Of a DNA stretch of 64,000 bases, positions 26,137 through 35,177 are shown in pieces. The notes under the pieces were generated by a model. It searched no databases. It saw only the letters and a program-made list of their open reading frames with translations, and was not told the origin of the DNA. The stretch comes from Clostridiales bacterium FE2011 (GTDB lineage Bacteria; Bacillota; Clostridia; Christensenellales; Aristaeellaceae). Made by a program: the position numbers and the translations under genes. Location of the stretch: contig CP069418.1 in assembly GCA_017569305.1 (NCBI GenBank), forward strand, positions 2,914,001 to 2,978,000, in the 5' to 3' direction. The number at the start of each line of letters is the position of its first letter. The first letter of the stretch is position 1.

Positions 26137-26511
26137 ATGATGACCATCAGGGAAGTCATGGAAATTGTGGATGGAAAGGTGCTTGTCGGGGCAGACAGAC
26201 TGGATGAACGGGTGGATACGGCCTGCGGATCCGACCTGATGAGCGACGTGCTGGCTTTTGTGAAAGAAAAAGCCGTGCTGATCACAGGACTGATTAATCC
26301 CCATGTGCTCCGGACATCTGAGATGCTGGACATTACCTGCATCGTCTTCTCGCGGGGGAAAATGCCCAGCGAAGAGATGCTGGAGATGGCGGAGGAAATC
26401 GGTATCACGGTGATTTCCAGTCCGCTGACAACTTATACCGCGTGCGGAGAACTGTATGTTCACGGCCTGCCTGGTACGAAAAGGAAGACAGGCGTAACAG
26501 AGGGGGTGTAA
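26137..26511 (+). CDS. DRTGG-domain protein 1
   Basis: Small protein of 124 aa made of one DRTGG-type domain, the domain of unknown function found beside CBS domains and in phosphotransacetylase N-termini. The start VMEIVDGKVLVGADRLDERVDTACGSDLMSDVLAF and the end GITVISSPLTTYTACGELYVHGLPG are typical. Start at 26137, with AGAAGGGAGA upstream. It is 3 bp from the RsbW-like gene and is the first gene of the hydrogenase-linked signalling cluster. A paralogue lies at 28872. Ligand unknown; nucleotide or redox-metabolite sensing has been suggested for such domains in general. Confidence 0.75.
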   Translation: MMTIREVMEIVDGKVLVGADRLDERVDTACGSDLMSDVLAFVKEKAVLITGLINPHVLRTSEMLDITCIVFSRGKMPSEEMLEMAEEIGITVISSPLTTYTACGELYVHGLPGTKRKTGVTEGV

Positions 26512-26514
26512 GCG

Positions 26515-26943
26515 TTGGCGTACATCCTTGAGAAAAGCTTTCCTGTGGAAGCAGGCGCATATACCACAGCCGGCGAGGCATCCACAACCATCAAAAGGAC
26601 TCTGAAACAGCTTGGCATCAGTGCGGAAGTGCTTCGGCGTGTGTCTGTTGCCTGCTATGAGGTGGAGCTGAACCTGGTTATCCACTCACTGGGCGGAACG
26701 CTGACGCTTCTGGTGGATCCGGAAAAGGTGACGCTAATATCCAAGGACGTGGGTCCCGGCATTCCGGATATTGATATGGCCATGACGGAGGGATTCTCCA
26801 CAGCCAGTGCGGAGGCACGGACGCTGGGATTCGGCGCCGGCATGGGCTTGCCGAATATGAAGCGGAACGCGACAGAATTCGATATCCAGAGTGAAGTGGG
26901 CGTCGGAACGACGATAACGATGTCGTTTGCTCTTGCAGGATAA
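26515..26943 (+). CDS. RsbW/SpoIIAB-like ATP-binding protein
   Basis: A 142-residue GHKL ATPase domain standing alone, like anti-sigma serine kinases. Conserved boxes are the N-box region VACYEVELNLVIHS (about 44-57), the G1 box DVGPGIPDIDMAM (about 77-89), and GFGAGMGLPNMKRNATEFDIQSEVGVGTTI (about 102-131). It lacks a His-kinase phosphoacceptor helix. It could phosphorylate a partner Ser/Thr or act as a switch, and no anti-anti-sigma partner is adjacent. The TTG start at 26515 is 3 bp after the DRTGG gene, behind GAGGGGG. It belongs to the cluster leading to the sensory hydrogenase. Confidence 0.8.
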   Translation: MAYILEKSFPVEAGAYTTAGEASTTIKRTLKQLGISAEVLRRVSVACYEVELNLVIHSLGGTLTLLVDPEKVTLISKDVGPGIPDIDMAMTEGFSTASAEARTLGFGAGMGLPNMKRNATEFDIQSEVGVGTTITMSFALAG

Positions 26944-26945
26944 TT

Positions 26946-26966
26946 CATCATTCACAATTCATAATT
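26946..26966 (+). repeat. Heptad array, CATAATT type
   Basis: CATCATT, CACAATT, CATAATT between two genes of the hydrogenase cluster. Confidence 0.75.
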
Positions 26967-27086
26967 TGAAGTATTGTCTGGAGATTGAGTATTAAGCAAA
27001 GACAGAGAATAAGATGAGTAACTCCGAAGGTGATTCTTTTCCCCAGGGTGAACAGATCATCAATTCGGTTATACAGGAGACAGGCT

Positions 27087-28382
27087 ATGGAACAGAAACG
27101 GTTTCATTCGGTGAGGCTGGAAGGCGATAAATGCAGGGGCTGTACGAACTGTCTGAAGCGGTGCCCGACAGAGGCAATCCGCGTCAGAGGCGGACGGGCG
27201 CACATTATTGATGAGCGCTGCATTGACTGCGGCGAATGTATCCGCGTGTGCGGTTATCATGCCAAGGTGGCCGTGACGGATCCGCTGTCCTCCATCAGCG
27301 GCTTCAAGTATAAGATTGCACTGCCCGCACCGAGCCTGTATGGACAGTTCCAGAACCTGAAGAGCATCAGCCAGGTGCTGAACGGCCTGAAACAGATGGG
27401 TTTTGATGACGCGTTTGAGGTGGCGAGGGGAGCGGACGTTGTATCCCAGGCTATCCGGGAACGCCTGAAGAATCCGGATCTGCCCAGACCGGTGATCTCT
27501 TCTGCCTGTCCTGCTATCGTGCGACTGATCCAGGTCCGTTTCCCGGATCTGCTGGATCATATTGTGGACGTACGCCAGCCGATGGAAGTGGCGGCTATGA
27601 TTGCCAAGCGGGAATATGCCCGTTCGCACGGTGTGAAGGAAGAAGAAATTGGCTGTTTCTTTATTACTCCCTGTCCGGCAAAGGTGACGGCAATCCGCAG
27701 ACCGATCGGCCACGCGAAGAGCGCGGTGGATGGAGCCATTTCCGTGCTCGAGATCTATGGCTTGCTTTCCAGCCAGATCCGGAATGCTCCGGTGGATATC
27801 AGTCTGGAAACAGCATCGGACCTGGGCGTGGGCTGGGCCAGAAGCGGCGGCGAATGCAATGCTGTAAGCCCGGAGAACTCCATGTCTGTGGACGGAATTG
27901 AAAACTGTATCCATGTGCTGGAAGAAATTGAAGATAACAGGTTGAAACACCTTGAGTTCTTTGAGGGCGCTGCCTGCACAGGCGGCTGTGTGGGCGGACC
28001 GCTGAACTTTGAAAACAACTATGTGGCACGGTCCAACGTCCGTCGCCTTGCCAGCCGGGATCAGAACCCGGAACTCAACGTGGACAATGGTATGATGACG
28101 AAGTATCCGCTGTACGACGACCTGAGCATCCTGCCGAACTCCGCGATGAAGCTGGATGAAGATCTGATGGAAGCCATGCGCAAGATGGAACGCATTGACA
28201 AGATCTATAAGGAACTGCCGGGCTTCGACTGCGGAAGCTGCGGAAGTCCGACGTGCAGGACGTTTGCAGAAGACGTTGTTCAAGGCGTTGCAACCAAAAT
28301 GGATTGTATACACATGATGAAGGAACAACTTCGTGTAATGGCCCAGCAGATGGTTGATCTTGCGAAAACAACGCGCGAGTGA
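27087..28382 (+). CDS. Putative sensory [FeFe]-hydrogenase (HydS-like)
   Basis: Protein of 431 aa. Two N-terminal [4Fe-4S] motifs (CRGCTNC, CIDCGEC; about residues 12-60) precede a hydrogenase large-subunit domain and a C-terminal Fe-S module, CGSCGSPTC with FAEDVV (about 378-395). The four H-cluster cubane cysteines appear kept: Cys141 (SSACP), Cys196 (TPCPAK), Cys297 and Cys301 (ACTGGC). The neighbouring proton-shuttle Cys of catalytic enzymes is Ala140. That substitution is known for putative sensory [FeFe]-hydrogenases (groups C/D). It has no PAS or kinase domain, so signalling must pass through neighbours. Start at ATG 27087 behind CAGGAGA. Alternative: a non-H2 redox protein of the same fold. 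Confidence 0.8.
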   Translation: MEQKRFHSVRLEGDKCRGCTNCLKRCPTEAIRVRGGRAHIIDERCIDCGECIRVCGYHAKVAVTDPLSSISGFKYKIALPAPSLYGQFQNLKSISQVLNGLKQMGFDDAFEVARGADVVSQAIRERLKNPDLPRPVISSACPAIVRLIQVRFPDLLDHIVDVRQPMEVAAMIAKREYARSHGVKEEEIGCFFITPCPAKVTAIRRPIGHAKSAVDGAISVLEIYGLLSSQIRNAPVDISLETASDLGVGWARSGGECNAVSPENSMSVDGIENCIHVLEEIEDNRLKHLEFFEGAACTGGCVGGPLNFENNYVARSNVRRLASRDQNPELNVDNGMMTKYPLYDDLSILPNSAMKLDEDLMEAMRKMERIDKIYKELPGFDCGSCGSPTCRTFAEDVVQGVATKMDCIHMMKEQLRVMAQQMVDLAKTTRE

Positions 28383-28404
28383 TCGCGACGTTGCTTTCGC
28401 GAAT

Positions 28405-28432
28405 GCATAATGCATAATGCATAATGCATAAT
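28405..28432 (+). repeat. Heptad array, GCATAAT type (left of inserted gene)
   Basis: Four perfect units of GCATAAT just before the four-helix-bundle gene. The array after that gene (28831-28851) has the same unit in reverse complement. Confidence 0.9.
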
Positions 28433-28466
28433 TACAGATGGTCAGCCGCCAGAAGTGGAGGACAAG

Positions 28467-28829
28467 ATGAAAACGGATAATCTGATTGTTGACAAAAGCA
28501 AAGAATTTGCGATCAGAGTGATTCGTTTGTACCAGCATCTTGAAGACAAAAAGCAAGGATTTGTTTTGTCAAAACAAATCCTTAGAAGCGGAACCAGCAT
28601 TGGTGCGAATGTAAAAGAAGCATCCAGAGCACAAAGCAAGGCGGATTTTATTGCAAAGATGCAGATAGCTCTGAAAGAAGCAAGTGAAACAGAATATTGG
28701 ATCGAATTGCTGATGGAAACGCAATATATTACTGAAAAAGCTGGAGCGAGCCTGCTTGAAGACTGTCAGGAACTCATCAAGATGATAATGACTATTGTCA
28801 AAACAGCAAAGGATAATCAAAGTAAATAA
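28467..28829 (+). CDS. Four-helix-bundle protein (23S rRNA intervening-sequence protein family)
   Basis: A 120-residue helical protein of the S23/IVP family (TIGR02436-like), related to the Avd accessory proteins of diversity-generating retroelements. Hallmarks are VDKSKEFAIRVIRLYQHL at the start, QILRSGTSIGANVKEASRAQSKADFIAKMQIALKEASETEYWIELL in the middle, and DCQELIKMIMTIVKTAK at the end. It is much more A+T-rich than all neighbouring genes, and it interrupts a signalling/hydrogenase gene cluster. It is bracketed by oppositely oriented heptad arrays, which suggests recent insertion as a cassette. Start at 28467 after GGAGGA. The function of free-standing members is unknown; an RNA-binding or basic-surface oligomer is likely. 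Confidence 0.85.
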   Translation: MKTDNLIVDKSKEFAIRVIRLYQHLEDKKQGFVLSKQILRSGTSIGANVKEASRAQSKADFIAKMQIALKEASETEYWIELLMETQYITEKAGASLLEDCQELIKMIMTIVKTAKDNQSK

Positions 28830-28830
28830 C

Positions 28831-28851
28831 ATTATGCATTGTGCATTATGC
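28831..28851 (-). repeat. Heptad array, inverted GCATAAT type (right of inserted gene)
   Basis: ATTATGC, ATTGTGC, ATTATGC, the reverse complement of the array at 28405-28432. Confidence 0.85.
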
Positions 28852-28871
28852 GTTTGGGGGAGGATACGACC

Positions 28872-29225
28872 ATGACTGTTAAGGAACTGTGCGAGCTGAT
28901 TGAAGCGAAGGATATGACGCCGGAAGCGGATAAGAGCGTGGAGGTTTCCTGCGGGTATACCTGCGACCTGCTGAGCTGGGTGATGGCTCACGGTACAGCA
29001 GGGATGGCGTGGGTGACTGTGCAGACTCATATGAACGTTATTGCTGTAGCCAGCCTGATGGAGATGGCTGCAGTGATTATCCCCGAAGATATTGAGATGG
29101 AAGCACCCTCGCTGGAAAAAGCCCAGAGTGAAGGAATCAACGTGCTTCAGACGCCGCTGACGGCCTATGAGATCTGCGCGCGGCTGGCGGAGGCAGGATT
29201 GCCCGGAAAGAACCGGGAGGTATAA
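28872..29225 (+). CDS. DRTGG-domain protein 2
   Basis: Second DRTGG-type protein of the cluster, 117 aa, distantly similar to the one at 26137 (shared layout ending INVLQTPLTAYEICARLAEAGLPG). The N-terminal half MTVKELCELIEAKDMTPEADKSVEVSCGYTCDLLSWVMAH carries two Cys in CGYTC. Start ATG 28872 behind GGGAGGA. It ends 3 bp before the PHP gene, so both are translated from one message. Such proteins recur next to hydrogenase genes in Clostridia and Thermotogae, but their ligand is not known. Confidence 0.72.
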   Translation: MTVKELCELIEAKDMTPEADKSVEVSCGYTCDLLSWVMAHGTAGMAWVTVQTHMNVIAVASLMEMAAVIIPEDIEMEAPSLEKAQSEGINVLQTPLTAYEICARLAEAGLPGKNREV

Positions 29226-29228
29226 AAT

Positions 29229-29921
29229 ATGTGGGTGGATCTTCATATTCACTCCTGTCTCAGTCCCTGCGCGGATGACGACATGACGCCGGCGAATATC
29301 TGCGGCATGGCGCATATCAAGGGACTGGACGCGATTGCGGTGACAGACCATAATACAGCCCGGAATCTGCCTTTTGTGAAAGAGGCAGCGGATTATTACG
29401 GCCTGATACTGCTGCCGGGAATGGAGATCACCACAAAGGAAGAAGTGCACCTGCTGGGATATTTCCGTGATGTGGATACAGCTGTGGAGGTCGGGGAGAT
29501 CTTTTCCAGCCATCTGCCGCCGATGAAAAACAAGCCGGATTTCTTTGGTAATCAGCTGGTGATGAACACGGACGATGAAACGGTTGACGTGGAAGAACGG
29601 CTGCTGATCGGTGCGACTGACCTGGACCTGGCGGAATGTACCCGGATTATCCGGGAACACGGCGGCGCGGCGGTACCGGCGCATATCAACCGGGGCCACG
29701 GGCTGCTGGTGAACCTGGGACTTTTTCCGGAAGAACCGGATTTCCCGGTGGTGGAGGTACGGCCGGAACTGCCGGTCAACGAAAAACTGATCGCCGGGAA
29801 AAAGCGGCTGTGGTCTTCAGACGCCCATCATTTAGGGGATATCCTGGAGGCAGTGAGCGAGCTTGATACTGACCGTTTTTCACTGGGCGGATTGTTTGAT
29901 CTAATCAGAAATGAAAAATGA
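29229..29921 (+). CDS. PHP-domain metal-dependent phosphoesterase
   Basis: A PHP-fold hydrolase of 230 aa. Metal-binding motifs are DLHIHSCLSPC at the N-terminus, VTDHNTARN near 39-47, the LLPGMEITTKEEVHLLGYF block near 62-80, PAHINRGHGL near 155, and SSDAHHLGDI near 198-207. Family members hydrolyse phosphoesters of nucleotides or small metabolites. In this cluster it could remove a phosphoryl group in a signalling pathway, which is inference. The stop codon falls in an ATGAAAA/ATGAAGA heptad run (29911-29924). A 12-bp hairpin at 29959-29992 probably terminates this transcript before hydC. Confidence 0.82.
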   Translation: MWVDLHIHSCLSPCADDDMTPANICGMAHIKGLDAIAVTDHNTARNLPFVKEAADYYGLILLPGMEITTKEEVHLLGYFRDVDTAVEVGEIFSSHLPPMKNKPDFFGNQLVMNTDDETVDVEERLLIGATDLDLAECTRIIREHGGAAVPAHINRGHGLLVNLGLFPEEPDFPVVEVRPELPVNEKLIAGKKRLWSSDAHHLGDILEAVSELDTDRFSLGGLFDLIRNEK

Positions 29922-29924
29922 AGA
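29911..29924 (+). repeat. Heptad array supplying a stop codon, ATGAAGA type
   Basis: ATGAAAA then ATGAAGA, followed in register by GTTAAGA. The TGA stop of the PHP gene (29919-29921) is part of it. Confidence 0.65.
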
Positions 29925-29958
29925 GTTAAGATACAGATAATGTACAGGGGTTATTGTT

Positions 29959-30001
29959 GAGGCGTGCCGGGCGAGGATGACCGGCGCGCCTCCTGCGTTT
30001 T
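29959..30001 (+). terminator. Hairpin, likely terminator
   Basis: 12-bp stem with one G-T pair (29959-29970 with 29981-29992), followed by a weak T-run (29997-30001). It separates the signalling genes from hydC. The remainder, up to 30195, holds a dyad (30044-30059), an imperfect AT-rich dyad (30066-30080) and a possible -10 (30115-30120). Confidence 0.5.
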
Positions 30002-30043
30002 GGACAGGAGCGAAGGCCGGAAGCCTTGAAAAACAAGGGGTTA

Positions 30044-30059
30044 GTTAGTCGCGTCTAAC
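30044..30059. promoter_or_regulatory. Candidate operator upstream of hydC
   Basis: GTTAGTCGCGTCTAAC is a 16-bp dyad with 14 of 16 symmetric positions, about 55 bp before the likely -10 of the hydrogenase genes. The size and GTTAG/CTAAC arms fit a dimeric repressor site. The cognate regulator is unknown. Confidence 0.4.
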
Positions 30060-30195
30060 CAAAAAGTTTAATATTTCAACCGTTAAAGCCCTTTTCTTTC
30101 AAGGGCGAATATGATAAAATCAATCGGATAGCTGTAATGGGCAGAGTCTGCCTTTACATAAGTCTCAAAAACATCCCAAGGAGGTCAAGGACTGT

Positions 30196-30666
30196 ATGCC
30201 TGACAACAAGGAAAAGTATGCAAAGCTGCAGGAAGTGATCGAGAAGCACAAGGGTGAACGCGGTGCCGTGATGCCCTGCCTGCAGGAGGCCATGAACATT
30301 TTCGGCTATGTGCCGCAGGATGTTCAGGAAATGATCGCGGACGGACTGGGCGTAACCCTGTCTGAAGTCTACGGTGTTTCCACTTTCTATTCCCAGTTCT
30401 CCCTGAAGCCTAAGGGAAAACACGTGATCGGTGTGTGCCTGGGCACGGCCTGCTACGTCAAGGGAAGCCAGAAGATCATCGAAAAGCTTTCCGAGGAGCT
30501 GAAAATCCAGCCCGGAGATACCACGGACGACGGTCTGTTCACACTGAACGCTACCCGTTGCCTGGGTGCCTGCGGTCTTGCTCCCGTTATGATGATCGGC
30601 GAAGAGGTATACGGCCGGCTGACGCCGGATCAGGTCCCCGGTATTCTCGAAACCTATCGTGCGTGA
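30196..30666 (+). CDS. hydC: Bifurcating [FeFe] hydrogenase subunit HydC (NuoE-like)
   Basis: A 156-residue thioredoxin-fold [2Fe-2S] protein equivalent to NuoE. The cluster cysteines lie in CLGTACYVKGS (about 82 and 87) and CLGACGLAP (about 122 and 126), and the N-terminal LQEAMNIFGYVPQDVQEMIADGLGVTLSEVYGVSTFY is typical. With HydA and HydB it forms the electron-bifurcating hydrogenase that couples NADH and reduced ferredoxin oxidation to H2 formation, or the reverse. Start at 30196 with AAGGAGG upstream. It overlaps the next gene by 8 bp. Confidence 0.93.
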   Translation: MPDNKEKYAKLQEVIEKHKGERGAVMPCLQEAMNIFGYVPQDVQEMIADGLGVTLSEVYGVSTFYSQFSLKPKGKHVIGVCLGTACYVKGSQKIIEKLSEELKIQPGDTTDDGLFTLNATRCLGACGLAPVMMIGEEVYGRLTPDQVPGILETYRA

Positions 30667-31216
30667 TCTGAGTCTTCACCTGCTGGATCTGGCGCAGAAC
30701 AGTATCACAGCCGGCGCGAGCCTGGTGACCATCCGTCTGACCCTGGAAGAGAACGGGATGCTGACCATGGAACTCGCGGATAACGGTAAAGGAATGAGCC
30801 CGGAGCTGCTGGCCCGGGTAACCAGTCCTTTTGCCACAACCAGGACAACCCGCAAGGTTGGACTGGGAATTCCCATGATGAAGGAGAACGCCGAAAGAGC
30901 CGGAGGCACTTTCCATCTGGAAAGTGAGGAAGGAAAGGGAACAACCCTGACCTGTTCCATGGATACCGGCAACATCGACTGTCTTCCGCTTGGGGATTTA
31001 TCCGGTACTTTGCTGAGTCTGATGCTGACCAATCCGTTGTTTCCGGATTTCCTTTTCGAGGGTAAAAGCCCGAAAGGAGAGGGAAGCTTCGATACGAGAG
31101 AGGTCAGGAATGCGCTGGGCAGCGACATCCCCTTTAACGAGCCTTCCGTGGCCGCATGGCTGAAGGAAGCGCTGGACGAGGAAATCAACTCAATCTTTGG
31201 AGGTGTATTGATATGA
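30659..31216 (+). CDS. Stand-alone GHKL ATP-binding protein in hydrogenase operon
   Basis: A 185-residue protein whose first about 105 residues form a histidine-kinase-type ATPase domain: N-box LLDLAQNSITAG, G1 ADNGKGMSPELL, a TSPFATTRTTRKVGLGIPMMKENAERAGG lid/G2 region, and EEGKGTTLTC. There is no dimerisation/phosphoacceptor helix. The C-terminal about 75 residues have no family I can name. Genes like this are known in bifurcating-hydrogenase operons of Clostridia and Thermotogae but have no established role. Alternatives are a serine kinase, a chaperone-like factor or a regulator. The GTG start overlaps hydC, and the stop overlaps the next start (ATGA). Confidence 0.82.
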   Translation: MRDLSLHLLDLAQNSITAGASLVTIRLTLEENGMLTMELADNGKGMSPELLARVTSPFATTRTTRKVGLGIPMMKENAERAGGTFHLESEEGKGTTLTCSMDTGNIDCLPLGDLSGTLLSLMLTNPLFPDFLFEGKSPKGEGSFDTREVRNALGSDIPFNEPSVAAWLKEALDEEINSIFGGVLI

Positions 31217-31581
31217 AATCTTTGGCAGATCTGGAAGCCATCCGCGCAAAGACGCTGGAAAGCATTAACATGCGCAAGGACACGGACGCCTGCCGCGTTG
31301 TAATCGGCATGGCCACCTGCGGTATTGCCGCCGGCGCCCGCCCCGTGATGCTTGCCTTTATGGAAGAAATCCAGAAGCGGAACCTGCAGCACGTGACCGT
31401 GAGCCAGACCGGCTGCATCGGTATGTGCCGTTATGAGCCTATGCTGGACGTGATCCTGCCCGGCAAGGAAAAGGTTACCTACATCCACGTGAAGCCTGAA
31501 ATGGTGCCGCGGATCGTAGCTGAGCACATTGTTAACGGTCAGCCTGTGGAAGAATATACCATCGGCGCCGCAAAAGACTAA
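31213..31581 (+). CDS. Thioredoxin-like [2Fe-2S] ferredoxin
   Basis: Protein of 122 aa resembling the N-terminal [2Fe-2S] domain of NuoF/HydB. Candidate cluster ligands are in MATCGIAAGARP (about residue 37), CIGMC (about 70-74) and a Cys near 27. It lies between the ATP-binding gene and hydB with 4-bp and 27-bp junctions, and may add an electron-transfer site or interact with HydB. The start at ATG 31213 overlaps the preceding stop; the frame is open 19 codons further upstream, but within the previous gene. Confidence 0.85.
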   Translation: MKSLADLEAIRAKTLESINMRKDTDACRVVIGMATCGIAAGARPVMLAFMEEIQKRNLQHVTVSQTGCIGMCRYEPMLDVILPGKEKVTYIHVKPEMVPRIVAEHIVNGQPVEEYTIGAAKD

Positions 31582-31608
31582 TTAACGACAAAGAGGAGGA
31601 AAACCCAG

Positions 31609-33405
31609 ATGGAGCTTTATCGTTCTCATGTGCTGGTCTGCGGCGGCACCGGCTGTTCTTCTTCCGGTTCCGCGAAGCTGATTGAACGCTTCGAGGAGCA
31701 GCTGAAGGAAAAGGGCCTTGACAAGGAAGTCAAGGTAGTCCGCACGGGCTGCTTCGGACTGTGCGAAGCCGGTCCCGTTGTTATCGTTTATCCCGAAGGA
31801 ACTTTCTACAGCCGCGTTAAGGAAGAAGACGTGGATGAGATCGTATCCGAGCACCTGCTGAAGGGCCGTAAGGTTCAGCACCTGGTCTATGTGGATCACA
31901 AGACCCACGAGAGCAGCGTTCAGAAGAGCCTGAATGAGATCGGCTTCTACAAGCAGCAGCAGCGCGTCGCACTACGGAACTGCGGTGTGATCGATCCTGA
32001 AAACATCGATGAATACATTGCCTTCGACGGCTATAAGGCCCTGGCAAAGGCCCTGACCGAAATGACTCCTGAGCAGGTTTGCCAGGAAGTGCTGGATTCC
32101 GGTCTGCGCGGCCGCGGCGGCGCCGGTTTCCCCACCGGTAAGAAGTGGCAGTTCGCCCGTGCCAGCCAGGCTGAGCACAAGTACTTCGTCTGTAACGCTG
32201 ACGAAGGCGACCCCGGCGCGTTCATGGACCGCTCCCTGCTGGAAGGCGATCCCCACGCGATCCTGGAAGCCATGGCCATCGGCGGCTACGCCATCGGCGC
32301 TGATGAAGGCTGGATTTACGTCCGTGCTGAGTACCCCATCGCCGTGAAACGCCTGGAGAAGGCCATCGAGCAGGCTCATGAATACGGCCTGCTGGGTGAG
32401 AATATCTTCGGCACCGGCTTCAACTTTGACATTCACATCCGCCTGGGCGCCGGCGCGTTCGTGTGCGGCGAAGAAACCGCTCTGATGGCCTCCATCGAAG
32501 GCAAGCGCGGCGAGCCCCGTCCGAAGCCCCCGTTCCCGGCTGTGAAGGGTCTGTTTGAGAGCCCCACCAACATCAACAACGTTGAAACCCTGGGCAACAT
32601 CGCCCAGATCATCCTGAAGGGTGCGGACTGGTTTAAGTCCATTGGTATTCCTTCCTCCACCGGTACAAAAGTTTTCGCCCTGGGCGGCAAGATCAACAAC
32701 ACCGGTCTGGTGGAAGTTCCCATGGGTATCCCGCTGCGCACCATCATCGAAGACATCGGCGGCGGCTGCCCGAACGGCAAGAAGTTCAAGGCCGTTCAGA
32801 CCGGCGGTCCTTCCGGCGGATGTATCCCCGCCAGCATGCTGGACATCTCCGTGGACTATGACAGCCTGACCAAGATCGGCGCCATGATGGGTTCCGGCGG
32901 TATGATCGTCATGGACGAAGACAACTGTATGGTGGACATCGCCCGCTTCTTCCTCGACTTCACAGTTGATGAGAGCTGCGGTAAGTGCACACCCTGCCGC
33001 GTTGGTACCCGCCGCATGCTGGAGATCCTTGAACGGATCACCCAGGGCAAGGGCGAAGAAGGCGACATCGAGAAGCTGGAAACCCTGGCCGAAAACATCA
33101 AGAGCAGCGCTCTGTGCGGTCTGGGCCAGACGGCTCCGAACCCGGTGCTTTCCACCATCAAGTACTTCCGCGATGAGTATGAAGCGCACATCAAGGAAAA
33201 GCGCTGCCCGGCACATCACTGCCAGGCCCTGCTGAACTACAAGATCACCGACGCCTGCCGCGGCTGTACTGCCTGCGCCCGCAAGTGCCCGGTGAACGCG
33301 ATCACCGGCAACGTCAAGGAACAGCACGTGATCGACCAGAACAAGTGCATCAAGTGCGGAAGCTGCATGGCGACATGTAAGTTCGGCGCTATCATCAAGG
33401 AATAA
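31609..33405 (+). CDS. hydB: Bifurcating [FeFe] hydrogenase subunit HydB (NuoF-like)
   Basis: Flavin subunit of 598 aa. Domains in order: thioredoxin-like [2Fe-2S] (CGGTGC at 11-16, GCFGLC near 46-51); NuoF core with LRGRGGAGFPTGKKW near 165-179 for NADH/FMN and GAFVCGEETAL near 281-291; a [4Fe-4S] site in ESCGKCTPCRVGTRRM near 453-468; and a C-terminal two-cluster ferredoxin (CRGCTACARKC near 550, CIKCGSCMATC near 580). FMN here is the expected bifurcation site with NAD(H). The strong GAGGAGG site and highly biased codon use indicate high expression. Confidence 0.95.
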   Translation: MELYRSHVLVCGGTGCSSSGSAKLIERFEEQLKEKGLDKEVKVVRTGCFGLCEAGPVVIVYPEGTFYSRVKEEDVDEIVSEHLLKGRKVQHLVYVDHKTHESSVQKSLNEIGFYKQQQRVALRNCGVIDPENIDEYIAFDGYKALAKALTEMTPEQVCQEVLDSGLRGRGGAGFPTGKKWQFARASQAEHKYFVCNADEGDPGAFMDRSLLEGDPHAILEAMAIGGYAIGADEGWIYVRAEYPIAVKRLEKAIEQAHEYGLLGENIFGTGFNFDIHIRLGAGAFVCGEETALMASIEGKRGEPRPKPPFPAVKGLFESPTNINNVETLGNIAQIILKGADWFKSIGIPSSTGTKVFALGGKINNTGLVEVPMGIPLRTIIEDIGGGCPNGKKFKAVQTGGPSGGCIPASMLDISVDYDSLTKIGAMMGSGGMIVMDEDNCMVDIARFFLDFTVDESCGKCTPCRVGTRRMLEILERITQGKGEEGDIEKLETLAENIKSSALCGLGQTAPNPVLSTIKYFRDEYEAHIKEKRCPAHHCQALLNYKITDACRGCTACARKCPVNAITGNVKEQHVIDQNKCIKCGSCMATCKFGAIIKE

Positions 33406-33428
33406 TCGCGCGAGGAGGAACAACACAA

Positions 33429-35177
33429 ATGGAAAATCTCGTTAAGCTTACGATTGACGGCGTCAGTGTTGAAGTTCCGGCCGGCACGACGGTTCTGGAA
33501 GCGGCGAAAAAAGCCGGGATCAACATCCCCACGCTGTGCTACCTGAAGGATATCAACCAGATCGGCGCCTGCCGTATGTGTATCGTTGACACCGGTGCCC
33601 GCGCGTTCGGCGCGGCCTGCGTGCTGCCCGTGAGCAACGGCATGAACGTCAAGACCAACACCCCCAAGATCCGGGAAGCCCGCCGGGTGAACCTGGAACT
33701 GCTGCTGAGCAACCATGACAAGAAGTGCCTGGACTGCGCCCGCAACCAGAAGTGTGAACTGCAGCAGATGTGCCAGGACCTGGGCGTGGATGACGTGGAC
33801 AAGTACAAGGGCAAGATGAACGAATATGACATTGACGATCTGAGCCCCTCCATCGTCCGCAACAACAACAAGTGCATCCTGTGCCGCCGCTGCGTGGCCG
33901 CCTGTAACAACACCCAGGCCGTCGGCGTGATCGGCCCCATGGGACGCGGCTTCAAGACCAAGATCGGCAGCGCCTGGGAGCAGCCCCTGAACGACGTGGC
34001 CTGCATCAACTGCGGTCAGTGTATCGCGGCCTGCCCGACCGGCGCTCTGTATGAGAAGGATTCCACCAAGGCTGTCTGGGATCTGCTGAATGACGAAACC
34101 AAGACAGTGGTTGTGCAGCCCGCTCCCGCGGTCCGCGCCGCCCTGGGTGAAGAGTTCGGCATCCCGATGGGCACTGCTGTGACCGGCAAAATGGCCGCTG
34201 CCCTGCGCCGCCTGGGATTCAACAAGGTGTTTGACACCGACTGGGCTGCTGACCTGACCATCATGGAAGAAGGCACCGAGTTCATCGGCCGCCTGACCAA
34301 CGGCGGTGTGCTGCCGATGATCACCAGCTGCTCTCCCGGATGGATCAAGTTCTGCGAAACCTACTATCCGGACTTCATTCCGAACCTGTCTTCCTGCAAA
34401 TCTCCCCACGAGATGGAAGGCGCGATGATCAAGACCTACTGGGCGGAGAAGGTCGGCATCGATCCCAAGGACATCAAGGTTGTGTCCGTGATGCCCTGTA
34501 CCGCCAAGAAGTTCGAGGCGAAGCGTCCCGAACTGGGCCACAACGGCCTGGCAGACGTTGATGAAGTCATCACCACCCGTGAACTGGCCAAGATGATCAA
34601 GGAAGCCGGTATCGACTTCGCAAACCTGCCCGATGAAGACTTTGATCCCGTCCTCGGCGAAAGCACGGGCGCGGGCGTCATCTTCGGCGCGACTGGCGGC
34701 GTTATGGAAGCTGCCCTGCGTACCGTCTATGAAATCGTGACCAAGGAAACGCTGGACAAGGTCGACTTCACAGCGGTCCGCGGTATCGAAGGCGTGAAGG
34801 AAGCCACCATCAAGGTGGGCGATCTGGACGTCAACGTGGCGGTTGCCCACGGCACTGCCAACGCGGCGAAGCTGCTGGACAGCGTCCGCAGCGGTGAGAA
34901 AACCTACCACTTCATCGAGGTCATGGGATGCCCCGGCGGCTGCGTGACCGGCGGCGGTCAGCCCATCGTATCCGCCCAGAAGCGGATGGAATGCGATCCC
35001 AAGACCCTGCGTGCCGCGGCCCTGTACAACGAGGACGCGAACAAGCCGCAGCGGAAGTCCCACGAGAACGCTTCCATCATGGCGGTTTACAAAGACTACC
35101 TGGGCGAGCCCAACAGCCATCTGGCTCACGAGCTGCTGCATACCCACTATACAGCCCGCCCGAAGTACAAGAAGTAA
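33429..35177 (+). CDS. hydA: Bifurcating [FeFe] hydrogenase catalytic subunit HydA
   Basis: Catalytic subunit (582 aa) making or consuming H2. The N-terminal [2Fe-2S] domain has Cys37, Cys48 and Cys51. Next come a His-Cys [4Fe-4S] motif (NHDKKCLDCARNQKC, near 95-109) and two [4Fe-4S] motifs (CILCRRC, CINCGQC). The H-cluster domain then shows L1 TSCSPGW (299-305), L2 MPCTAKKFE (355-363) and L3 EVMGCPGGCVTGGG (497-510). L1 has Ser302 where the textbook motif has its second Cys; this variant is found in other anaerobes, but its effect is not obvious. The C-terminal small-subunit region ends in LLHTHYTARPKY. No maturase genes (hydEFG) are in the window. Confidence 0.95.
   Translation: MENLVKLTIDGVSVEVPAGTTVLEAAKKAGINIPTLCYLKDINQIGACRMCIVDTGARAFGAACVLPVSNGMNVKTNTPKIREARRVNLELLLSNHDKKCLDCARNQKCELQQMCQDLGVDDVDKYKGKMNEYDIDDLSPSIVRNNNKCILCRRCVAACNNTQAVGVIGPMGRGFKTKIGSAWEQPLNDVACINCGQCIAACPTGALYEKDSTKAVWDLLNDETKTVVVQPAPAVRAALGEEFGIPMGTAVTGKMAAALRRLGFNKVFDTDWAADLTIMEEGTEFIGRLTNGGVLPMITSCSPGWIKFCETYYPDFIPNLSSCKSPHEMEGAMIKTYWAEKVGIDPKDIKVVSVMPCTAKKFEAKRPELGHNGLADVDEVITTRELAKMIKEAGIDFANLPDEDFDPVLGESTGAGVIFGATGGVMEAALRTVYEIVTKETLDKVDFTAVRGIEGVKEATIKVGDLDVNVAVAHGTANAAKLLDSVRSGEKTYHFIEVMGCPGGCVTGGGQPIVSAQKRMECDPKTLRAAALYNEDANKPQRKSHENASIMAVYKDYLGEPNSHLAHELLHTHYTARPKYKK

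What the first reader, a model, noticed from the sequence alone, without database searches (positions are those of the whole stretch)
26137..35177. A possible hydrogen- or redox-sensing signalling system fused to the bifurcating hydrogenase locus
Seen: within 9 kb, two DRTGG proteins (26137, 28872), two GHKL ATP-binding proteins without phosphoacceptor helices (26515, 30659), a PHP phosphoesterase (29229) and a hydrogenase-like protein with H-cluster ligands but no proton-shuttle Cys (27087) precede or interleave with hydC, a [2Fe-2S] protein, hydB and hydA. Known: groups C/D of [FeFe]-hydrogenases are regarded as sensors; PHP proteins are phosphohydrolases; RsbW-like proteins are Ser kinases or anti-sigma factors. 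Inference: HydS senses H2 or ferredoxin potential and passes it through a kinase/phosphatase pair (GHKL and PHP), with DRTGG proteins as ligand-binding modules. Because HydS has no PAS or kinase domain, its output must run through partners, and these neighbours are the obvious ones. I know of no described mechanism for this set.
Basis: partly seen in the sequence, partly recalled or inferred. Interest (0 to 1): 0.8.

Follow-up and report, generated by a model that had tools for sequence, protein, structure and literature searches.

The report
Conserved hydrogen-sensor signalling gene cassette
A small set of genes next to a hydrogen-making enzyme looks like a self-contained switch that could tell the cell how full of hydrogen or electrons it is, and the same set turns up in many unrelated anaerobic bacteria.

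Summary
They form a conserved cassette: DRTGG1, GHKL1, HydS, DRTGG2, PHP, often with GHKL2. In 398 same-phylum genomes HydS occurs in 157, GHKL1 in 169, both in 155 (Fisher 8e-91); HydS and PHP co-occur in 147 (3e-85). It also occurs in Bacteroidota, Spirochaetales, Anaerolineaceae and Coriobacteriales records, and as a free-standing six-gene operon (L019, L119). So it is not 'fused' to HydABC: it lies beside HydABC, beside Rnf, or alone. Natural fusions link DRTGG1-GHKL1, GHKL1-HydS, HydS-DRTGG2 and PHP-GHKL2. Some cassettes lack HydS; 6 of 12 such loci carry a CBS pair on GHKL1 instead. GHKL1 is SpoIIAB-like with an intact catalytic set; both DRTGG proteins carry a near-invariant Asp-x-x-Ser.

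Best reading: an RsbT/SpoIIAB-like kinase switch with an exchangeable sensor (H2/redox HydS, or CBS), DRTGG proteins as its targets, PHP as eraser. The cassette is shown; phosphorylation and output are inferred. Neighbouring 'kinases' were in print by 2012; my searches showed no paper on the DRTGG/PHP set.

The parts
26137..26511 (+). DRTGG1, 124 aa: DRTGG-domain protein with module-specific Asp33-x-x-Ser36; proposed target or ligand domain of GHKL1
   Evidence: Pfam PF07085 2.5e-10; S36 in 146 of 146, D33 in 144 of 146, T50 in 146 of 146 rows; fused to GHKL1 in 6 of the 161 loci read and across at least 94% of the fusion in each of the 120 listed hits (120 best of 4781)
26515..26943 (+). GHKL1, 142 aa: SpoIIAB/RsbT-like ATP-binding kinase domain without phosphoacceptor helix
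27087..28382 (+). HydS, 431 aa: group D (M2e)-type [FeFe]-hydrogenase-like protein, putative H2/redox sensor, no PAS domain found
   Evidence: Pfam; H-cluster Cys 141, 196, 297, 301 in 138 of 138 rows; C382-x2-C385-x4-C390-x16-C407 (first three 138 of 138, C407 136 of 138); residue 140 Ala
28455..28829 (+). 23S_rRNA_IVP / TIGR02436 four-helix-bundle gene between HydS and DRTGG2; not part of the cassette
   Evidence: not detected in close relatives L088-L090; five such genes in the genome
28872..29225 (+). DRTGG2, 117 aa: second DRTGG protein with invariant Asp32-x-x-Ser35
   Evidence: D32, S35, T49, N55 in 142 of 142 rows; fused to HydS in L020 and L062 and in 14 of 120 listed hits
29229..29921 (+). 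PHP-domain phosphoesterase, 230 aa, complete metal-ligand set; proposed phosphatase of the switch
   Evidence: Pfam; H6 131, H8 130, D40 H41 E66 H152 132, D198 and H200 131 of 132 rows; fused to GHKL2 in L012 and L067 and in 119 of 120 listed hits
30196..30666 (+). HydC (NuoE-like [2Fe-2S]), probable client complex
   Evidence: PF01257 2.5e-54
30659..31216 (+). GHKL2, 185 aa: second GHKL ATPase with its own conserved C-terminal region (D107, P110, G112)
   Evidence: D107, P110, G112 in 122 of 122 rows; last gene of free-standing cassettes L019 and L119
31213..31581 (+). Small [2Fe-2S] ferredoxin-like protein of the hyd block
   Evidence: NF041612 6.9e-10, below that model's cut-off; fused to GHKL2 in L022
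31609..33405 (+). HydB (NuoF-like), probable client complex
   Evidence: ORF; profile score 1051 bits
33429..35177 (+). HydA, NADH-dependent [FeFe]-hydrogenase group A6, probable client complex
   Evidence: NF040763 918 bits

Best explanation
DRTGG1-GHKL1-HydS-DRTGG2-PHP (with GHKL2) is one portable signalling cassette. Its heart is GHKL1, a SpoIIAB/RsbT-like Ser/Thr kinase. Input is exchangeable: in most cassettes HydS reads H2 or the ferredoxin-linked redox state at its H-cluster; in some HydS-less ones a CBS pair fused to GHKL1 probably reads adenylates. The two DRTGG proteins act as the kinase's partners and probable phosphoacceptors at the conserved Asp-x-x-Ser, and PHP removes the mark, much as RsbR/RsbS, RsbT and RsbX do in a stressosome (recalled). 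GHKL2 passes the state on to, or tunes, the ferredoxin/NAD enzymes HydABC or Rnf. Shown: gene set, adjacency, co-occurrence, fusions, intact catalytic residues, CBS on GHKL1 in part of the HydS-less cassettes. Inferred: kinase activity, phosphorylation of DRTGG, the role of PHP, the ligands, and control of HydABC/Rnf at protein level (no transcription factor was seen to recur widely beside the cassette).
For: Co-occurrence and adjacency; GHKL1-HydS adjacent in 131 of 135 same-strand pairs, DRTGG2-PHP in 129 of 130. Fusions. GHKL1 matches SpoIIAB by sequence and, in the model of fusion P0001, by fold, and keeps E49/N53/H57 in 154 of 154; among named hits, sources call the fusion proteins 'serine/threonine-protein kinase RsbT', 'anti-sigma regulatory factor', 'ATP-binding protein' or 'DRTGG domain-containing protein'. 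D-x-x-S in both DRTGG families (D 144 and S 146 of 146; both 142 of 142), absent from AF_1212 (alignment) and, by eye, from the genome's own DRTGG-bearing pyrophosphatase (sequence); that Ser lies at the start of a helix in the P0001 model. CBS-GHKL1 in 6 of 12 HydS-less loci against 3 of 142 others, p=4e-6, though the six come from three lineages. Clients: HydA A6 in 21 of 23 cassette genomes against 32 of 57 without (p=0.003); RnfC 18 of 23 against 22 of 57 (p=0.003) (no correction for relatedness). Related HydS-type proteins in the same loci are fused to sigma-54 activators or an MCP domain, so this sensor domain is joined to outputs elsewhere.
Against: PHP is missing from L043, L046 and L053, otherwise intact, and from L034 and L045, which also lack DRTGG1; those five genomes have no PHP hit at E<=1e-30. 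HydA A6 without a cassette is common (32 of 57), so the cassette is not needed for HydABC. Distance-matrix correlations do not single out kinase-partner pairs (GHKL1-HydS 0.53, GHKL1-DRTGG1 0.47, DRTGG1-DRTGG2 0.31, against HydS-HydA 0.77). pTM of the HydS-DRTGG2 fusion (0.75) does not show docking. No phosphoserine data; the D-x-x-S could be a ligand site. Fusions of neighbouring operon genes can arise by read-through. PMC13104023 (passages) reports that the C-terminal cluster of TamHydS is not reduced under H2, so the route of the signal inside HydS is unclear.
Confidence: 0.5

Rival explanations
1. Nucleotide-signal module: DRTGG (and CBS) bind a nucleotide, PHP makes or destroys it, and the GHKL proteins are ATP-driven conformational relays; no protein is phosphorylated.
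For: DRTGG and CBS are neighbours in a regulatory pyrophosphatase (3L2B/3L31 are the best PDB hits of DRTGG1); PHP resembles a 3',5'-nucleoside bisphosphate phosphatase and EndoQ; CBS-GHKL1 fusions.
Against: GHKL1 keeps the SpoIIAB catalytic set in 154 of 154; PHP is missing in some lineages; the D-x-x-S motif is not seen in the DRTGG domain of the genome's own pyrophosphatase (by eye).
Confidence: 0.22
2. Assembly or quality-control module: the GHKL ATPases and PHP help to mature, insert clusters into or repair FeS-rich HydABC and Rnf; HydS is a scaffold or cluster donor.
For: Maturase genes (HydG/HydF-like, recognised by eye) lie beside the cassette in part of the survey loci; GHKL2 and the small [2Fe-2S] gene sit inside the hydC-hydA block; GHKL2 has weak MutL similarity.
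Against: Free-standing cassettes (L019, L119); HydA A6 without a cassette in 32 of 57 genomes; CBS input domain; Rnf has no H-cluster (recalled).
Confidence: 0.13
3. Transcription switch: GHKL1 is an anti-sigma factor, DRTGG1 its antagonist, and the cassette controls a sigma factor encoded elsewhere.
For: GHKL1's closest solved relative is the anti-sigma factor SpoIIAB; L072 carries Rex two genes from GHKL1.
Against: Among neighbour clusters found in four or more loci I recognised only one regulator, an OmpR-like one in 4 loci (read by eye).
Confidence: 0.12
4. Ordinary operon hitch-hiking with no joint function.
For: Some wider synteny (ValS/FolC by eye; Maf, RadC, MreB) is plainly local.
Against: Concordant presence across 398 genomes; four kinds of fusion within the cassette; other phyla.
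Confidence: 0.03

Closest known systems
Group D (M2e) putative sensory [FeFe]-hydrogenases, type TamHydS (PMC8163306, PMC13104023; passages)
   Same: Domain plan, no PAS, C-terminal C-x2-C-x4-C-x16-C, no proton-shuttle Cys, encoded upstream of a trimeric bifurcating hydrogenase with a histidine-kinase-like ATPase nearby
   Different: The passages I read do not mention DRTGG or PHP partners, a free-standing cassette, the Rnf link, HydS-less cassettes or the fusions
Group C (M2f) sensory hydrogenases: HydDB C1 histidine-kinase-linked, C2 chemotactic, C3 phosphatase-linked (PMC5037454, passages); HfsB (PMC5707799, passages)
   Same: Same sensor core; proposed H2 sensing passed to signalling proteins; hfsB deletion changes fermentation
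   Different: They are described with a PAS domain or classical signalling partners; here the partners are separate DRTGG, GHKL and PHP proteins
Stressosome / partner switch RsbR-RsbS-RsbT-RsbX and SpoIIAA-SpoIIAB-SpoIIE (recalled)
   Same: RsbT/SpoIIAB-type kinase, two paralogous small partners with a conserved Ser at a helix start, a phosphatase, exchangeable sensor
   Different: DRTGG instead of STAS, PHP instead of PP2C, hydrogenase-like sensor; phosphorylation unproven
CBS-DRTGG inorganic pyrophosphatase (3L31, 3L2B) and HPr kinase/phosphatase N-domain (1KO7)
   Same: DRTGG fold (model of P0001)
   Different: No D-x-x-S seen in the own-genome pyrophosphatase; DRTGG is a stand-alone protein here

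Membership tests
Group D / M2e [FeFe]-hydrogenase (HydS) | Two N-terminal [4Fe-4S] motifs, H-domain, C-terminal Cx2Cx4Cx16C, no PAS domain | tested here: met
   feature list from passages of PMC8163306
Group D / M2e [FeFe]-hydrogenase (HydS) | Loss of the proton-shuttle Cys | tested here: met
   Residue 140 is Ala; no Cys among the residues listed for the 138 rows; position assigned from recall of the group A motif
Group D / M2e [FeFe]-hydrogenase (HydS) | Placement within the published group D tree | not tested
   No tree with named reference sequences was built
SpoIIAB/RsbW/RsbT kinase (GHKL1) | GHKL fold of SpoIIAB type without DHp helix | tested here: met
SpoIIAB/RsbW/RsbT kinase (GHKL1) | Catalytic Glu and Mg-binding Asn of the N box (roles recalled) | tested here: met
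   E49 and N53 in 154 of 154, aligned to SpoIIAB
SpoIIAB/RsbW/RsbT kinase (GHKL1) | Phosphorylates a Ser of a STAS-domain partner | tested here: inconclusive
   No STAS gene was recognised among the recurring neighbours, but STAS was not searched for; activity untested
Stressosome (RsbRSTX) | STAS-domain RsbR/RsbS scaffold and PP2C-type RsbX | tested here: not met
   The places are held by DRTGG and PHP proteins in the window; works-like claim only
DRTGG domain proteins | PF07085 over the curated cut-off / DRTGG fold | tested here: met
PHP phosphoesterase | Complete metal-ligand set (roles recalled) | tested here: met
   130 to 132 of 132 rows per position
Two-component histidine kinase | DHp helix with phosphoacceptor His and a response regulator | tested here: not met
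   GHKL1 (142 aa) and GHKL2 (185 aa) match only ATPase domains; no response regulator in the cassette

The most novel reading that the evidence does not exclude
A previously unnamed class of bacterial signal switch in which DRTGG proteins replace STAS proteins and a PHP phosphoesterase replaces PP2C around an RsbT-like kinase, with interchangeable sensors (H2-reading HydS, or CBS) set to govern the ferredoxin/NAD enzymes HydABC and Rnf across several phyla of anaerobes.
Probability: 0.35. Interest if true: 0.88.

Novelty: new variant of a known kind. Interest (0 to 1): 0.72.

Why it matters
[quoted passage not shown] The cassette names five specific partners, says which pairs should touch (from fusions), which residue to mutate (the D-x-x-S serine), and offers natural controls (HydS-less cassettes, CBS on GHKL1, PHP-less cassettes). 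If right, it links H2 and redox sensing to two major ferredoxin/NAD enzymes of many anaerobes.

Tried and rejected
Looked for a recurring transcription or sigma factor beside the cassette: among neighbour clusters in four or more loci, read by eye, only an OmpR-like regulator in 4 loci. Mirror-tree correlations gave no specific signal; I do not use them as support. The AF2 model of the HydS-DRTGG2 fusion has a low-confidence linker and pTM 0.75, which does not show docking. The DRTGG1-GHKL1 fusion model (pTM 0.77) hints at a fixed arrangement, but no PAE or coordinates were available. Promoter scan at chance level: 7 found, 6.9 expected. Diverged HydS of L149 and L154 checked for lost H-cluster cysteines: retained on inspection.

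Literature, judged from search listings except where passages are cited: (3 of 4 terms; DRTGG and hydrogenase; one paper, unread; 4 of 6; 3 of 4; 4 of 6; 3 of 6; 2 of 5) showed no paper that describes the set. One search listed 10 of 118 papers, none with the word phosphoproteome. One search listed three papers with a hyd-locus tag of Clostridium thermocellum or Caldicellulosiruptor; I read passages only of PMC3561251, not of PMC3478167 or PMC3990059. Passages of PMC13277313, PMC4320612, PMC4374699 and PMC10407848 gave nothing on the partners. Most subscription papers are not held.

Rows dropped before counts: per-family score floors and one best hit per locus; one search counts rest on those. 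The 12 HydS-less loci (L068-L072, L075, L080, L082, L111, L145, L148, L150) exclude L073, L074, L078, L079, L149 and L154, where HydS is split, cut by a contig end or diverged. They were partly fetched because they lacked HydS, and the six CBS cases come from three lineages (family f128: L068, L069; genus g118: L070, L071, L080; L075). Of the 14 genomes with GHKL1 but no HydS hit, G001, G091 and G278 do have HydS, split or cut; G036, G117, G150, G321 and G340 are HydS-less at the loci read; G009, G090, G159, G236, G306 and G328 were not examined. Regions were chosen by hand for spread over families (60 regions; 20 atypical ones), so percentages are not a random sample; one search kept the best 80 of at least 575. 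The client tests used 80 of the 398 genomes, taken by number.
Full report
Observation. The weak case is DRTGG2 (28872), below the Pfam cut-off, but it belongs to a clear orthologous family. A 23S_rRNA_IVP gene (28455-28829) sits between HydS and DRTGG2 and was not detected in the three closest relatives.

Is it more than chance? HydS was sought in 398 genomes drawn evenly from the phylum: 157 hold it at E<=1e-70. The same genomes were searched with profiles of GHKL1 (169 at E<=1e-25) and PHP (155 at E<=1e-30). Overlaps are 155 (HydS and GHKL1), 147 (HydS and PHP) and 145 (all three); Fisher p 8e-91 and 3e-85. Shared ancestry alone is a poor explanation: in 11 families for which I could place genomes with and without HydS (f4, f17, f25, f32, f35, f39, f44, f45, f48, f58, f64), HydS and GHKL1 are present or absent together (the 15 negatives checked). 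Families f13, f21, f23, f30, f47, f50, f72, f76, f77, f92 and f122 hold the 16 discordant genomes, several of them explained by split or cut HydS. The best 80 include Bacteroidota (among them Parabacteroides gordonii), Spirochaetales, Coriobacteriales and Anaerolineaceae records by title; HydS is the neighbour of GHKL1 in 76 of these 80.

Anatomy. Over 161 loci read (chosen for spread, not at random), neighbours on the same strand are adjacent in 128 of 137 (DRTGG1-GHKL1), 131 of 135 (GHKL1-HydS), 120 of 124 (HydS-DRTGG2) and 129 of 130 (DRTGG2-PHP) cases. Of 138 HydS loci, GHKL1 is found in 136, DRTGG1 in 126, DRTGG2 in 126, PHP in 114, GHKL2 in 105 and HydA in 82; contig ends lower these numbers. 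In L019 and in P. gordonii (L119) the six genes stand alone between unrelated genes, as far as the DNA held reaches. In L071, L145 and L150 a HydS-less set precedes an RnfC-like gene, judged by HydB-profile similarity and size. In L072 GHKL1 is followed by RseC, Rex, a cytochrome, NfnAB-like genes, formate-THF ligase and RnfC; DRTGG1 was detected only in its look-alike L082. [quoted passage not shown] So the cassette is not a part of HydABC; it travels with enzymes that exchange electrons between ferredoxin and NAD. Among G001-G080, HydA A6 is in 21 of 23 genomes with GHKL1 and 32 of 57 without; RnfC in 18 of 23 and 22 of 57; either in 22 of 23 and 39 of 57.

Fusions. Domain searches show DRTGG1-GHKL1 (six loci, two families), HydS-DRTGG2 (L020, L062), GHKL1-HydS (L045), PHP-GHKL2 (L012, L067) and GHKL2-Fdx2 (L022). 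In the protein database the 120 listed hits to the DRTGG1-GHKL1 fusion (best of 4781) all cover at least 94% of it, in two identity clusters; 14 of 120 listed hits (best of 7688) cover HydS-DRTGG2; 119 of 120 listed hits (best of 1002) cover at least 89% of PHP-GHKL2, the other 70%. Fusion of operon neighbours may start as read-through, but repeated, kept fusions point to partnership.

Exchange of sensors. GHKL1 carries two CBS domains (1.5e-28 and 1.5e-29 in two examples) in 6 of 12 loci without HydS and in 3 of 142 others; the six come from three lineages. Related HydS-type proteins in the same loci are fused to a sigma-54 activator (L031, L060) or an MCP domain (L037). HydDB lists histidine-kinase-linked, chemotactic and phosphatase-linked group C types; the words 'group D' do not occur in its text (PMC5037454, passages).

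Mechanism. I commit to a kinase switch centred on GHKL1, with HydS (or CBS) as input, DRTGG1/2 as partners and likely phosphoacceptors, PHP as eraser and GHKL2 as link to HydABC or Rnf. The gene set, its independence and the pairings are shown; every enzymatic step is inferred. PHP-less cassettes (L043, L046, L053; also L034 and L045, which lack DRTGG1 too), modest tree correlations and an uninformative second model stand against parts of it.

Prior art. Group D hydrogenases were classed as sensory because they lie near protein kinases and bifurcating hydrogenases (PMC3561251, passages). [quoted passage not shown] Its C-terminal cluster is not reduced even under H2 and its native partners are little known (PMC13104023, passages). 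Deletion of hfsB, a PAS-bearing relative, raises ethanol yield (PMC5707799, passages). My searches (listings) showed no paper that describes DRTGG and PHP as partners; the library lacks most subscription papers, including PMC4248817, PMC3438948 and PMC3591994, which I could not read.

The overlaps and the G001-G080 table were recounted from the listings by script and stood. Mended on checking: the PHP-less list, the L072 gene order, the lineage origin of the CBS cases, the discordant families, and what was seen of each paper.

Noticed in passing
window 28402-28432 (+) and 28831-28854 (-): Heptad repeats (AATGCAT)n bracket the inserted 23S_rRNA_IVP gene in opposite orientations; the 17-bp pattern occurs 19 times in the window with up to 3 mismatches against 0.16 expected. 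Of two other IVP loci read, only L171 has one match.
   Followed up: partly
window 30045-30058: Palindrome TTAGTCGCGTCTAA about 140 bp upstream of hydC; the pattern's only exact copy in the genome, one other site with one mismatch, against 14 for the reversed control pattern. Possible regulator site of the hydC-hydA block.
   Followed up: partly
L007:8132-12419 (genome C1 2734131-2738418): The same genome holds an hfs-like cluster: a second HydS-type protein (564 aa, no PAS hit at 1e-5), a SpoIIE-type phosphatase and a ferredoxin-type [FeFe]-hydrogenase, so two sensor types coexist.
   Followed up: partly
L031:1110-3332, L060:15486-18140, L037:8821-10731: HydS-type sensor domains fused to a sigma-54 activator (two loci) and to an MCP signalling domain, beside cassettes or a GHKL1-HydS pair.
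   Followed up: no
L037, L054, L059, L139: GHKL1-HydS pairs without DRTGG or PHP in the DNA held; in family f86 DRTGG1 and PHP, with DRTGG2 and GHKL2 where detected, lie elsewhere (L076, L077, L086), in a layout like L068, where Maf, RadC and MreB were identified.
   Followed up: partly
L149, L154: Diverged HydS in Erysipelotrichaceae/Solobacterium records: H-cluster cysteines kept, but the conserved G-W-x-x-x-G-G-E region is lost.
   Followed up: no
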